From Streptococcus porcinus (GTDB lineage: Bacteria; Bacillota; Bacilli; Lactobacillales; Streptococcaceae): 64,000 nt of DNA. The notes beneath the pieces were generated by a model. That model saw nothing but the letters and a program-made list of their open reading frames with translations, did not search any database and was not told the DNA's origin. Of this stretch, positions 3,635 to 12,261 are shown one piece after another (the first letter of the stretch is position 1; every line of letters begins with the position of its first letter). The stretch spans positions 1,674,001-1,738,000 of the forward strand of contig NZ_LR594036.1 in NCBI RefSeq assembly GCF_901542335.1, in the 5' to 3' direction. The translations under genes and the position numbers were made by a program.

Positions 3635-3684
3635 TTTTGCGATCGAATTAAGGTTATCGCTAAAAAATCTATCCCTATGTACTG

Positions 3685-3728
3685 CACCCCAAAAGTTGGA
3701 CAAAAAATCTAACATTTGGGGTGTTTTT
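3685..3728 (+). promoter_or_regulatory. IS left-end hairpin plus T-run masking the transposase SD
   Basis: The arms 3685-3700 (CACCCCAAAAGTTGGA) and 3708-3723 (TCTAACATTTGGGGTG) pair over 15 of 16 positions and are followed by five T residues and, 2 nt later, the orfA ATG. The SD-like GGGG lies in the 3' arm. The structure should both terminate incoming transcription and hide the start site, as is known for protective hairpins in other IS elements. Confidence 0.75.
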
Positions 3729-3730
3729 GT

Positions 3731-4267
3731 ATGAAATTAAGTTATGAAGATAAATTAGAAATTTATCGTTTAAAGAAGTCAGGTGTTTCCTGGACTCAAT
3801 TAGAGATTCAATTTGGAGTAACCCGCTGCAACTTAAAATATACCATTCGACTGATGGATCGTTATGGAGTTGAGATCGTTAAGAAGCAAAAGTACCAAGC
3901 TTATTCACCTGAAATGAAGCAAGAAATGATTAATAAAGTCTTGAAAGATGGGCAATCCTTAATGTCAGTTTCTCTAGATTACGCCTTCCCAAATCCAGGA
4001 ACTCTTGCCAATTGGATAGCGCAATACAAGAAAAATGGTTATACTATTGTTGAGACAACAAAAGGGAGACCAGCAAAAATGGGACGTAAACCAAAGAAAA
4101 CTTGGGAAGAAATGACTGAATTAGAGCGCCTTCAGGAAGAGAACGAATATCTCAGAACGGAGAACGCCTTCCTAAAAAAGTTAAAAGAGTTAGAAGAACG
4201 GGACGAAGCTATCGAGAAAGAACGACAGAAATCATTAAAGAAATGGTTGATGGAGGATTTAGATTAG
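3731..4267 (+). CDS. IS3-family transposase OrfA (DNA-binding subunit)
   Basis: OrfA is the helix-turn-helix protein of IS3-type elements; alone it represses, and fused to OrfB it forms the active OrfAB transposase. The 178-aa product begins MKLSYEDKLEIYRLKKSG. It has two HTH-like segments (about 10-45 and 60-100) and a C-terminal leucine-zipper-like coiled coil (ELERLQEENEYLRTENAFLKKL). The ATG at 3731 is preferred over an upstream TTG because it follows the hairpin-embedded GGGG directly. The last codons overlap orfB. Confidence 0.92.
   Translation: MKLSYEDKLEIYRLKKSGVSWTQLEIQFGVTRCNLKYTIRLMDRYGVEIVKKQKYQAYSPEMKQEMINKVLKDGQSLMSVSLDYAFPNPGTLANWIAQYKKNGYTIVETTKGRPAKMGRKPKKTWEEMTELERLQEENEYLRTENAFLKKLKELEERDEAIEKERQKSLKKWLMEDLD
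4174..4180 (+). promoter_or_regulatory. Programmed -1 frameshift site A AAA AAG
   Basis: The heptamer A AAA AAG lies in the correct phase of orfA (third base of CTA, then AAA AAG). A -1 slip leads into the orfB frame, which stays open from 4180 to the orfB stop. This is the classical IS3-family signal for making OrfAB. Confidence 0.85.
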
Positions 4268-5076
4268 GTTTACTTCTAAGAGCAGCTCAATTAGCTCGTT
4301 CAACCTATTACTATCATCTTAAGCAACTAGAACAAGATGATTTAGACAAGTCCATTAAAAACCAAATTCAAGAAGTCTATCAGAAACATAAAGGTAACTA
4401 TGGCTATCGTCGAATCACTTTGGAACTGCGTAACAGAGGTTTTATCATCAACCACAAAAGAGTTCAGCGCTTGATGAAAGAACTAGGTTTGGCAGCGAGA
4501 ATACGTCGCAAAAGACGCTATTCATCTTATAAGGGTGAGGTTGGAAAGAAAGCAGATAACCTTATTCAACGCCATTTTGAAGCCTCTAAACCTTTTGAGA
4601 AGTGTTACACCGATGTGACTGAATTTGCTTTACCTGAGGGAAAACTCTATTTATCACCAGTTCTTGATGGTTATAATAGCGAGATAATAAACTATACCAT
4701 TTCACGTTCTCCTAACTTAAACCAAATTAAAACGATGCTAGAAAAGACATTTCCAGATAAATACTATAACGGAACTATTTTACATAGTGATCAAGGCTGG
4801 CAGTATCAGCACAACTATTATCATCACTTTTTAAACTCTAAAGGTATCCGTCCATCTATGTCACGTAAAGGAAACAGCCCTGACAATGGGATAATGGAAT
4901 CCTTCTTTGGCATATTAAAGTCAGAAATGTTCTATGGCTATGAGAGCTACTATAAATCTCTGGGAGATTTAGAAAAAGCTATTAAAAAATATATTGATTA
5001 TTACAACAATAAACGGATCAAAGTAAAACTAAAAGGACTTAGTCCCGTACAATACAGAACTAAATCCTTTGCTTAA
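4243..5076 (+). CDS. IS3-family transposase OrfB (DDE integrase core)
   Basis: This is the catalytic part of the transposase, made mainly as an OrfAB fusion through the upstream slippery site. In the 277-aa frame the N-terminal HTH_21 region (QEVYQKHKGNYGYRRITLEL, about 43-62) is followed by the rve core with D124 (YTDVTEF), D183 (HSDQGWQYQ) and E219 (MESFFG). The D-to-E spacing is 35 residues, as in the DD(35)E class. The C-terminal YIDYYNNKRI motif is typical of the IS150 group. All catalytic residues are present. It overlaps orfA by 25 bp. Confidence 0.95.
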   Translation: MVDGGFRLGLLLRAAQLARSTYYYHLKQLEQDDLDKSIKNQIQEVYQKHKGNYGYRRITLELRNRGFIINHKRVQRLMKELGLAARIRRKRRYSSYKGEVGKKADNLIQRHFEASKPFEKCYTDVTEFALPEGKLYLSPVLDGYNSEIINYTISRSPNLNQIKTMLEKTFPDKYYNGTILHSDQGWQYQHNYYHHFLNSKGIRPSMSRKGNSPDNGIMESFFGILKSEMFYGYESYYKSLGDLEKAIKKYIDYYNNKRIKVKLKGLSPVQYRTKSFA

Positions 5077-5125
5077 AATATAATGTCTAACTTTTGGGGG
5101 TCAGTACACTATTGGGACAGATTTT

Positions 5126-10522: not shown

Positions 10523-10559
10523 CCCCTTTTACTGGACTAATCCAGTGAAAGGGGTTTTT
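10523..10559 (+). promoter_or_regulatory. IS left-end 14-bp hairpin plus T-run masking the transposase SD
   Basis: Arms 10523-10536 and 10541-10554 pair perfectly (one T-G pair) around a CTAA loop and are followed by TTTTTG and the orfA ATG. AAAGGGG, the only SD-like sequence, lies in the 3' arm. glnPQ transcripts entering the IS should fold it, so it can act as a replacement terminator and as a translation block for transposase. Confidence 0.78.
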
Positions 10560-10561
10560 GT

Positions 10562-11125
10562 ATGAAATATAATTATAATTTTAAATTAAATGCAGTAAAC
10601 ATGTATCGTTCAGGTCAGTGGATAGAGACTCCAGTTGGTATCGGGCAAAAAAACTTTAGAAAAAGAATTGTCCGATGGTCAAAAACTGCGGAAATACATG
10701 GTTTTGATTTTCTAAAACATTCAAAATCATCTAAAAATCGTACAGTTGAAGAAAGATATGAGCTAGTTGCACGTGTCTTCTCTGGAGAATCTCAAAGTAG
10801 TGTTGCAATTAACGCGGGTATTGATACTGGACTATTGTCTAAATGGGTTCAAATATATAAAATAAAAGGGTATGAAGGATTGAATCTTAAAAGAGGTCAC
10901 CGAAGGAAAAAGGAACCGCCTATGACTAAAAAATATAAGCCAGCTGATTTAACGCCTACAGAAAGAGAAGAATTAATAAGATTAAGAGCTGAAACAGCCT
11001 ATTTAAAAACAGAAAATGAAGCAATAAAAAAATTAATCGCCTTGAGACACAAAAAGGAAGCTGCGCTACTCAAGGCGAAAAAGCGGCAATCGTCAAGGAA
11101 CTTAAAGAAAAAGGATATCACATAA
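10562..11125 (+). CDS. IS3-family transposase OrfA (double HTH type)
   Basis: This is the DNA-binding subunit of the second IS. The 187-aa product begins MKYNYNFKLNAVNMYRSGQ, with two HTH_29-like units (about 5-55 and 62-110), a basic stretch (KRGHRRKKE) and a C-terminal coiled coil (ELIRLRAETAYLKTENEAIKKL). The ATG lies 2 nt after the T-run of the left-end hairpin. The reading frame ends about 90 bp after the slippery site, so OrfA and OrfAB differ only at the C-terminus. Confidence 0.9.
   Translation: MKYNYNFKLNAVNMYRSGQWIETPVGIGQKNFRKRIVRWSKTAEIHGFDFLKHSKSSKNRTVEERYELVARVFSGESQSSVAINAGIDTGLLSKWVQIYKIKGYEGLNLKRGHRRKKEPPMTKKYKPADLTPTEREELIRLRAETAYLKTENEAIKKLIALRHKKEAALLKAKKRQSSRNLKKKDIT
11026..11032 (+). 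promoter_or_regulatory. Programmed -1 frameshift site A AAA AAA
   Basis: An A7 run in orfA phase (ATA AAA AAA TTA). After a -1 slip the next codons read INRLETQKGS and continue open into orfB. No convincing ATG or SD exists for separate orfB translation. Confidence 0.8.
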
Positions 11126-11943
11126 AATATCTTCTCAAAGCAGTAAACCTAGCCAAATCAACTTATTATTTCGAGATTGGCAAGATAGATGCTGTTGCTT
11201 TAAGAAACGAAGAGTTACTTAACGAAATCAAAAGTATTTTTGAGTCAAATAAAAGTAGATATGGCGTTAGACGAGTCTATCAAGAACTGATTAATCGTGG
11301 ATACAAGGTGAACCATAAGAGAGTTCAACGTCTCATGCATAAAGAAGGTTTATTAGGCAAACGTCCAAAGGAAAAATACCATTCCTATAAAGGTGAGGTA
11401 GGAAAGATTGCCGACAATATTATTGCTAGAAACTTTAGCACAACTGCGCCTTTACAAAAGTGGACAACAGATGTCTCTCAGTTTAATTTTTCATGGGGAA
11501 AGTGTTATATATCGCCAGTTTTAGACATGAACACAAATGAAATCATATCATATGATTTATCTATGAGTCCTAATCTTGAACAGATAAGTAGAATGCTCGA
11601 TAGAGCTTTCAATAAATTTCCATCAGTAGATGGTCTTATATTTCATTCTGATCAAGGTTGGCAGTACCAACATCCTTATTTTAGAAATACATTACACCAA
11701 CATGGTATTGTCCAGTCTATGTCACGGAAAGGGAACTGCTACGATAATTGTATAATGGAGACATTTTTTGGAAGGTTAAAAAATGAGATGTATTATGGCT
11801 ATGAGAAAGACTATTCTTCATTTGAAGAATTCTCAAGAGCTGTTGAGAAATATATTGATTATTACAATAACAAAAGAATTCAGGCAAAAACAAAATGGAT
11901 GCCTCCTGTACAATACAGGATAACATCCATGCGTTCCGCCTAG
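11032..11943 (+). CDS. IS3-family transposase OrfB, expressed by frameshift
   Basis: This is the catalytic domain of the second IS transposase. The frame is open from the slippery site to the stop at 11941-11943, about 303 residues; the first possible start codon inside it that matches family position is only a GTG at 11308. Visible parts are LAKSTYYFEI and SRYGVRRVYQELINRGY (HTH_21), then the rve core with TTDVSQF, HSDQGWQYQHP and METFFG, giving D, D and E, and the YIDYYNNKRIQ tail. The lack of a proper start argues that it is made only as OrfAB. Confidence 0.88.
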   Translation: MNRLETQKGSCATQGEKAAIVKELKEKGYHIKYLLKAVNLAKSTYYFEIGKIDAVALRNEELLNEIKSIFESNKSRYGVRRVYQELINRGYKVNHKRVQRLMHKEGLLGKRPKEKYHSYKGEVGKIADNIIARNFSTTAPLQKWTTDVSQFNFSWGKCYISPVLDMNTNEIISYDLSMSPNLEQISRMLDRAFNKFPSVDGLIFHSDQGWQYQHPYFRNTLHQHGIVQSMSRKGNCYDNCIMETFFGRLKNEMYYGYEKDYSSFEEFSRAVEKYIDYYNNKRIQAKTKWMPPVQYRITSMRSA

Positions 11944-11983
11944 TTTATAAGTATGTGTCCAGGATTCTGGGTACATATCAACA

Positions 11984-12261
11984 ACCTAACAATTGAGGTC
12001 TTTTTTATAAAATAAATCTATGATAGAAAAGTAAAATAAGTGACAGTCATCTTATAGCTCTTAAAGAAATTTAAAAAAAATAACAACTAACTTAACTAAA
12101 ACTCCACTTCTTTAAAAAGTACCCCTATAGGGGACAACAACTTCAATTTCGATATCAACGCTTAAGGTTTAGAGAAAATCTGCAAAAAACACTAAGCACC
12201 AGTCCACAGTAGCATTTTCAATCTATACTCATTCAAAGTATTACTATTTTTAAAAATATAC
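11984..12261. other. Non-coding stretch after the IS; holds one GC-rich palindrome
   Basis: No credible gene is visible. The stretch begins with the detached right arm of the glnPQ terminator. The one salient element is CCCCTATAGGGG at 12122-12133, a perfect 12-bp palindrome in very AT-rich DNA. It resembles CsoR/CstR-type operators (C-run, short AT centre, G-run). It lies about 130 bp before the promoter of the 38-aa gene, with no csoR or copper gene next to it. Confidence 0.4.

What the first reader, a model, noticed from the sequence alone, without database searches (positions are those of the whole stretch)
3662..12006. Two different IS150-group elements share a preference for terminator loops
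Two distinct elements, both intact, both with 3-bp target duplications and only 7 kb apart, each split a Rho-independent terminator within its loop. One case could be chance; two suggest that these transposases recognise stem-loops, perhaps as extruded cruciforms. There is a precedent in the same IS3/IS150 branch: IS1397 and ISKpn1 insert into loops of REP/BIME palindromes. Insertion between genes spares the host, and the rule would explain the spread of IS861-like elements in compact genomes.
Basis: partly seen in the sequence, partly recalled or inferred. Interest (0 to 1): 0.82.

Follow-up and report, generated by a model that had tools for sequence, protein, structure and literature searches.

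The report
Jumping elements that target transcription terminators
Two related bacterial jumping elements in this window sit in the hairpin loops of transcription terminators, and their relatives in streptococci and other lactic-acid bacteria do so far more often than chance, so these elements seem to choose terminators as landing sites.

Summary
IS-A (IS861-like, 3678-5108, TSD CTA) and IS-B (10514-11980, TSD ACA) each split an A-tract/stem/loop/stem/T-tract hairpin at or in its loop. Of 118 scored IS-A-clade copies, 94 are intergenic, and in 66 of these a hairpin is centred within 4 nt of the insertion, against 3.4% of intergenic background positions and 5.8% of positions just 3' of genes (52 of 78 after clustering shared flanks). 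An ISL3 control gave 0 of 19. Hairpin plus both tracts is enriched 71-fold. Sites favour convergent gene pairs (54 of 94, against 41 of 276 regions) without orientation bias to transcription (18:17). More distant Lactobacillales relatives show it too, in some branches centred on the dyad, in others about 6 nt to either side. Best reading: the transposition complex recognises the symmetric terminator as DNA; whether as an extruded hairpin or as B-form DNA with A/T tracts is open. Palindrome targeting (IS1397, ISKpn1) and terminator targeting (IS1272) are known; the listings of ten searches showed no report for this clade.

The parts
3662..3677 (.). left half of the split terminator (A-run plus 5' stem arm, ending in TSD CTA 3675-3677)
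3678..5108 (+). IS-A, IS861-like element of the IS3 family, IS150-type, 1,431 bp, ends TGTACTG...CAGTACA
   Evidence: (12 full or nearly full copies at 98-100% in the genome)
3684..3730 (+). IS-A left-end stem-loop followed by a T-run just before the orfA ATG (terminator-like; predicted -22.8 kcal/mol, z -5.0)
3731..4267 (+). IS-A orfA (HTH)
4243..5076 (+). IS-A orfB (rve integrase core; NF033516 320.6 bits, cut-off 160)
5109..5127 (.). right half of the split terminator (TSD CTA 5109-5111, 3' stem arm, T-run)
10486..10513 (.). left half of the split terminator after the gene that ends at 10487 (A-run, 5' arm, TSD ACA 10511-10513)
10514..11980 (+). IS-B, second IS3-family, IS150-type element, 1,467 bp, ends TGATATG...CATATCA
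10523..10561 (+). IS-B left-end stem-loop plus T-run before the orfA ATG (predicted -23.9 kcal/mol, z -5.8)
10562..11125 (+). IS-B orfA (HTH_28)
11308..11943 (+). IS-B orfB as listed from its first in-frame start; the open frame (307 aa) begins further upstream and is presumably reached by frameshift
11981..12007 (.). right half of the split terminator (TSD ACA 11981-11983, 3' arm, T-run)

Best explanation
IS-A and IS-B belong to IS3/IS150-type lineages whose transposition complex selects intrinsic transcription terminators as DNA targets. The preferred target is a two-fold symmetric terminator (A-tract, stem, short loop, stem, T-tract). Strand transfer with a 3-bp stagger falls at the dyad in the IS861 and IS-B branches and about 6 nt to either side of it in two other branches. 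I take recognition to be of the symmetric DNA itself, most likely with the palindrome locally extruded or melted. Shown here: enrichment, position, joint need for stem and both tracts, preference for convergent gene pairs, no orientation bias, register that differs between branches. Inferred: that the transposase itself makes the choice, and the physical form of the target. Both elements carry a terminator-like hairpin at their left end, so transcription entering from that side is probably still stopped (inferred).
For: Position: 66 of 94 intergenic IS-A-clade sites have a hairpin of score 20 or more centred within 4 nt, against 3.4% of 55,888 intergenic positions and 5.8% of 16,907 positions 5-80 nt 3' of genes; 52 of 78 after clustering shared flanks. 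Arm pairing without joining, all 118 scored copies: 64% score 20 or more; left arms with right arms of other sites give 15.8% on average, at most 21.2% in 20 shuffles. Tracts: hairpin plus both tracts at 57% of sites against 0.8% (x71) and 2.2% 3' of genes (x26); reversed tracts at 0 of 94 (left) and 3 of 94 (right). Both tracts in 53 of 66 insertion hairpins against 64 of 228 distinct background intergenic hairpins (p 4e-14) and 53 of 116 of those 3' of genes (p 5e-6). Given both tracts, 84% of insertions have the hairpin, against 29% of background and 46% of 3' positions (computed). Orientation 18:17 between co-directional genes; convergent pairs 54 of 94 against 41 of 276 regions (p 1e-14). 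Register: within 4 nt in 80 of 88 hairpins of the IS861 and IS-B branches, 4 of 14 in a six-group branch (p 1.5e-6). IS-B lineage 9 of 11 arm scores of 20 or more. ISL3 control 0 of 19 centred. Short palindromic derivatives in the window's genome: 6 of 6 with arm score 24-31.
Against: 28 of 94 intergenic IS-A sites have no centred hairpin of score 20, and 24 of 118 copies have coding sequence on a side; several of the poor sites keep only the tracts. The A-tract coefficient exceeds the hairpin's. In group G396, 72% identical to IS-A in OrfB, only 2 of 6 intergenic sites reach score 20, two more being recombinants. Positive supercoiling between convergent genes (recalled) should disfavour cruciform extrusion. 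E. coli IS150 gives 2 of 7 distinct sampled sites with arm score of 20 or more. One genome per species was searched, so selection after insertion is mixed with targeting. The off-centre branches have only 18 and 8 intergenic sites, and G373 inside the six-group branch has a centred hairpin. The deep forks of the tree are weak (79/74).
Confidence: 0.62

Rival explanations
1. The complex recognises A-tracts and T-tracts about 13 bp to either side of the insertion (bent or narrow-groove DNA); terminators are hit because they carry such tracts, and no hairpin need form.
For: A is enriched at -16 to -10 and T at +11 to +18. Sites without a hairpin still have both tracts 5.4 times more often than background, and both tract coefficients exceed the hairpin's (A 1.49, T 0.96, hairpin 0.64 per SD).
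Against: Given both tracts, hairpins are still over-represented (84% against 29% and 46%). Dropping the hairpin from the fit costs more than dropping the T-tract, though less than dropping the A-tract. Re-pairing arms between sites loses complementarity. Other branches insert about 6 nt off the dyad on either side.
Confidence: 0.24
2. Transcription-coupled targeting: the complex is drawn to paused or terminating RNA polymerase, an R-loop or the nascent RNA hairpin.
For: Targets are terminator-like and enriched between convergent genes, where two transcripts end.
Against: No orientation bias between co-directional genes (18:17). Both tracts are wanted, not just one. Some in-gene sites keep the tract pattern.
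Confidence: 0.09
3. Selection alone: insertion is random, and only copies in harmless 3' regions survive.
For: 94 of 118 scored IS-A sites are intergenic by the ORF mask.
Against: Only 5.8% of positions just 3' of genes have a centred hairpin. ISL3 copies in the same genus score 0 of 19. Selection would not favour the loop over the stem or the flank.
Confidence: 0.03
4. Chance for the two window copies, no rule.
For: Only two cases in the window.
Confidence: 0.01

Closest known systems
IS1397 and ISKpn1 (IS3 family; REP/palindromic-unit targets)
   Same: Same family; insert specifically within REP palindromes, with the transposases held responsible (PMC1525189, passages seen; the loop position is recalled).
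   Different: Their targets are one repeated sequence family. Here 94 intergenic sites fall into 78 flank clusters and share a structure rather than a sequence.
IS1272 / TnSha1 (IS1182 family; terminator hairpins)
   Same: Terminator hairpins as targets without primary-sequence specificity (PMC4923244, passages seen).
   Different: Another transposase family; reported as blunt, without target duplication and with loss of stem-loop DNA. Here a 3-bp duplication.
IS150 of Escherichia coli
   Same: 48% identical OrfB; one sampled copy lies in a strong terminator-like hairpin after ogrK (arm 37) and one in a palindrome beside a plasmid hok gene (arm 25).
   Different: Only these 2 of 7 distinct sampled sites reach arm score 20; 4 of the 7 lie beside hok-family genes.
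IS1182-family element in the same genome (L177-L181)
   Same: Its five copies also lie at hairpins, most of them beside a T-run, in the same chromosome.
   Different: Its duplication is the whole palindrome, 15-23 bp; other family (NF033551).

Membership tests
IS3 family | OrfB with integrase core matching the IS3 model | tested here: met
   NF033516: IS-A 320.6 bits, IS-B 241.2 bits, cut-off 160; rve domains
IS3 family | Terminal repeats ending TG...CA with a 3-5-bp duplication | tested here: met
   Window elements. 97 of 118 scored IS-A-clade copies have a duplication of 3 bp or more
IS3 family | OrfA and OrfB joined by programmed frameshift | not tested
IS150 group | OrfB groups with IS150 rather than with other IS3 subgroups | tested here: inconclusive
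   48% identity of IS-A OrfB to IS150; the tree holds IS150 and ISKpn8 but no other IS3 subgroup as outgroup, and its deep forks are weak
IS861 | Sequence identity to the ISfinder reference | not testable with these tools
   Name recalled; ISfinder is not held
IS1397-type REP-specific elements | Target is one repeated palindromic sequence family | tested here: not met
   78 flank clusters among 94 intergenic sites
IS1272-type terminator targeting | Insertion without target duplication | tested here: not met
   3-bp duplications

The most novel reading that the evidence does not exclude
Much of the IS150 group reads DNA dyads: the transposase docks on an extruded terminator hairpin, and each branch has its own register relative to the dyad (centre, or about 6 nt to either side). 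Terminators would then be the general safe harbour of the group, and its palindromic miniature derivatives would lengthen terminator stems instead of breaking them, so that these elements reshape transcription ends across lactic-acid bacteria.
Probability: 0.4. Interest if true: 0.78.

Novelty: new variant of a known kind. Interest (0 to 1): 0.64.

Why it matters
Target choice by IS3-family elements is poorly explained (my judgement). Here one clade shows a strong structure-based rule that can be scored in any genome, a register that differs between branches and so could be mapped by domain swaps, and a clean negative control. It would help to explain how multicopy elements persist in compact genomes, and it predicts where terminators are broken, replaced or lengthened.

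Tried and rejected
Chance, selection alone and base composition alone were tested and disfavoured. A PF01609 element was picked as a negative control but proved to be an IS1182-family element whose duplication is a hairpin, so ISL3 was used instead. In that control 0 of 19 sites have a hairpin centred within 4 nt, but 5 of 19 have one within 15 nt (background 12%). Recombination between copies explains at least one failure pair: G396 L238 and L242 lack a TSD, but their flanks match crosswise as duplications and stems, seen by eye. IS150 was sampled as single best hits, 15 copies at 7 distinct sites. No structure prediction and no homologous-protein search were run.

Dropped or unexamined rows. 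Of 121 IS-A-clade loci, one partial copy was skipped (L062) and two lacked a left flank at a contig end (L053, L065): 120 sites, 118 scored. One search lists further full-length matches that I did not fetch, scored at most two per genome, and says more are unlisted; 62 of 63 loci had anchors (L272 did not); 47 of those 62 and 94 of 118 were intergenic; 20 loci fetched, 11 with a complete copy; 19 of 20 ISL3 loci with a duplication; 18 distinct pattern places, two of them (second places in G206 and G236) without a locus and not examined; of 22 entries, 2 had no clear ends and 4 were repeats, leaving 16 distinct (L399 and L400 differ by one base in the printed flanks, L402 and L403 share a left flank): 9 of 16 reach arm score 20 and 6 of 16 have a duplication of 3 bp or more; in the window's own genome 6 of 6 and 3 of 6. 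Gene context rests on a crude ORF caller; the site and background arrangements come from two versions of it.
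Full report
What is there. Window positions 3678-5108 hold an IS861-like element (IS-A; name recalled) and 10514-11980 a second, different element (IS-B). Both match the IS3-family model through OrfB, have TG...CA ends and a 3-bp duplication. IS-A lies between the start of a MecA-like gene (2821-3576, minus strand) and an undecaprenyl-diphosphatase-like gene (5126-5965, minus strand); IS-B follows an amino-acid ABC transporter ATPase-like gene (9747-10487) (coordinates; these labels are recalled). 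Each splits an A-tract/stem/loop/stem/T-tract hairpin. The window lies in a single-contig 2.16-Mb Streptococcus-group genome with 12 full or nearly full IS-A copies; I take it for Streptococcus agalactiae, which no call names.

Test of the rule in the genus. I took the 12 own copies and 109 loci from the genus search of 284 genomes (fetched there and). Of 121 loci, 120 had usable ends and 118 both flanks. Arm-against-arm pairing without joining gave a score of 20 or more in 64% of copies, against 5.3% of 9,317 intergenic positions, 9.2% of 1,210 positions 5-60 nt 3' of genes and 3.2% of 10,287 coding positions. Left arms with right arms of other sites gave 15.8% on average and at most 21.2% in 20 shuffles. 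For the 94 intergenic sites a hairpin of score 20 or more is centred within 4 nt of the insertion in 66 (70%), against 3.4% of 55,888 intergenic positions in 464 kb and 5.8% of 16,907 positions 5-80 nt 3' of genes. After clustering sites that share flanks it is 52 of 78; of these, 45 of 66 with a TSD and 7 of 12 without. An ISL3-family element in two streptococcal genomes gave 0 of 19, though 5 of 19 have a hairpin within 15 nt.

What is recognised. A is enriched at -16 to -10 and T at +11 to +18 around the insertion. Hairpin plus both tracts occurs at 57% of sites against 0.81% of intergenic positions (x71) and 2.2% 3' of genes (x26). Hairpin with one tract is x7, hairpin without tracts x3, both tracts without hairpin x5.4, neither x0.04; reversed tracts are found at 0 of 94 (T on the left) and 3 of 94 (A on the right). 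In the logistic fit the coefficients per SD are A-tract 1.49, T-tract 0.96, hairpin 0.64; dropping the A-tract costs most, then the hairpin, then the T-tract. Of insertion hairpins 53 of 66 have both tracts, against 64 of 228 distinct background intergenic hairpins (odds ratio 10, p 4e-14) and 53 of 116 hairpins 3' of genes (p 5e-6). So the target is the symmetric, bidirectional type of terminator. Convergent gene pairs hold 54 of 94 sites but 41 of 276 background regions (p 1e-14), and 45 of those 54 are centred on a hairpin. Between co-directional genes the element points with transcription in 18 cases and against it in 17. These facts favour recognition of DNA symmetry over transcription-coupled targeting.

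Breadth and register. A search with IS-A OrfB gave a match in 220 of 295 Lactobacillales genomes at E 0.001. I fetched 13 multicopy groups (OrfB about 45-78% identical), with ends set by copy-against-copy comparison and terminal repeats, not by hairpins. Together with three streptococcal IS-B copies, 32 of 62 arm scores are 20 or more, and 72% of the 47 intergenic sites have such a hairpin within 15 nt, against 12% of background. Not all groups are equal: G396 has 2 of 6 and G379 1 of 3 intergenic sites at that score. The register differs. Hairpin centres lie within 4 nt in 80 of 88 hairpins of the IS861 and IS-B branches, but in 4 of 14 of the branch of G478, G288, G340, G352, G418 and G373, where 9 of 14 lie 4.5-8 nt to one side or the other (p 1.5e-6); G379, G353 and G529 give 1 of 5 centred. 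Within 8 nt it is 86 of 115, 14 of 18 and 5 of 8 intergenic sites, against 6.7% of background. The OrfB tree supports the six-group branch (99/99), the IS861 branch (99/99), the IS-B pair (100/100) and the G379-G353-G529 branch (100/99); the deep forks are weak (79/74), and G373, centred, is an exception inside its branch. So register differs between branches, but I do not know its history. The IS-B lineage gives 9 of 11 scored copies at arm score 20 or more, 5 of 7 intergenic copies by the centred measure. E. coli IS150 is suggestive only: 2 of 7 distinct sampled sites.

Consequences for the host. Both elements carry a stem-loop with a T-run at the left end, just before orfA (predicted -22.8 and -23.9 kcal/mol, z -5.0 and -5.8; the right ends do not: z -1.6 and -0.3); 91 of 120 IS-A-clade copies match a strict form of the motif. 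Left-end terminators of insertion sequences are described (PMC2965389, passages seen). Such an element would replace the terminator that it breaks, in one direction (inference). Six 53-55-bp palindromic derivatives of IS-A in the window's genome have terminator-like flanks (arm scores 24-31, 6 of 6; a duplication of 3 bp or more in 3 of 6). Being palindromes, they lengthen the stem and so probably keep termination (inference). Similar perfect palindromes occur in 15 more of 279 streptococcal genomes with weaker support: over all genomes 9 of 16 distinct places score 20 or more and 6 of 16 have a duplication of 3 bp or more.

Against this reading. 28 of 94 intergenic sites have no centred hairpin of score 20. 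The tracts carry the larger coefficients, so tract recognition without a hairpin remains a serious rival. Data are from one genome per species, so targeting and later selection are mixed. The hairpin score is home-made, ungapped, and calibrated only against background; gene context rests on a crude ORF caller.

Literature. Ten searches of the open-licence PubMed Central set; their listings (capped at 10-25 papers; searches matched 1,784, 418 and 1,848) showed no report of terminator targeting by IS861 or other IS150-group elements. Subscription papers and ISfinder were not searchable. Passages seen: REP targeting by elements of five IS families, with IS1397 and ISKpn1 (PMC1525189); terminator-hairpin targeting by IS1272/TnSha1 (PMC4923244); IS1272 and an inverted-repeat-replacing mechanism (PMC5678879, title, one passage); pneumococcal terminator-like repeats (PMC3049150). 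The passages shown of PMC9208149 and PMC6211511 did not speak of terminators as IS targets.

Verdict. The physical mechanism is undecided.

Noticed in passing
L177-L181 (window genome, positions 1892974, 120178, 410014, 772709, 1159208): An IS1182-family element (NF033551, 452 bits) with five copies whose target duplication is the whole hairpin palindrome (15, 20, 15, 16 and 23 bp); a second hairpin-seeking family in the same chromosome.
   Followed up: partly
L028, L029, L030, L032, L033, L034 (window genome): Six 53-55-bp palindromic derivatives of IS-A with terminator-like flanks; insertion lengthens the stem. Similar palindromes in 15 further streptococcal genomes.
   Followed up: partly
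L022, L025 (window genome): Single left-end and right-end remnants of IS-A-like elements.
   Followed up: no
L238 and L242 (G396): Two copies without TSD whose flanks match crosswise as duplications and stems: a past recombination between the two copies.
   Followed up: partly
L059, L136, L141, L148, L149, L159 (other streptococci): Insertions into palindromes that begin with AAAACGCAT or nearly so; perhaps a repeat family used as a target, reminiscent of REP use by IS1397.
   Followed up: no
L350, L361, L364, L366 (E. coli): Four of seven distinct sampled IS150 sites lie beside hok-family type I toxin-antitoxin genes.
   Followed up: partly
window 6090-7993, minus strand: Two overlapping open frames (6090-6632 and 6626-7993) that look like one membrane protein with a glycine-rich tail read in two frames; possibly a frameshifted gene. 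Described only.
   Followed up: no
L014 (window genome 761462): An IS-A copy at what looks like the start of a lipoprotein gene, with a weak hairpin but clear A- and T-tracts; an informative exception.
   Followed up: no
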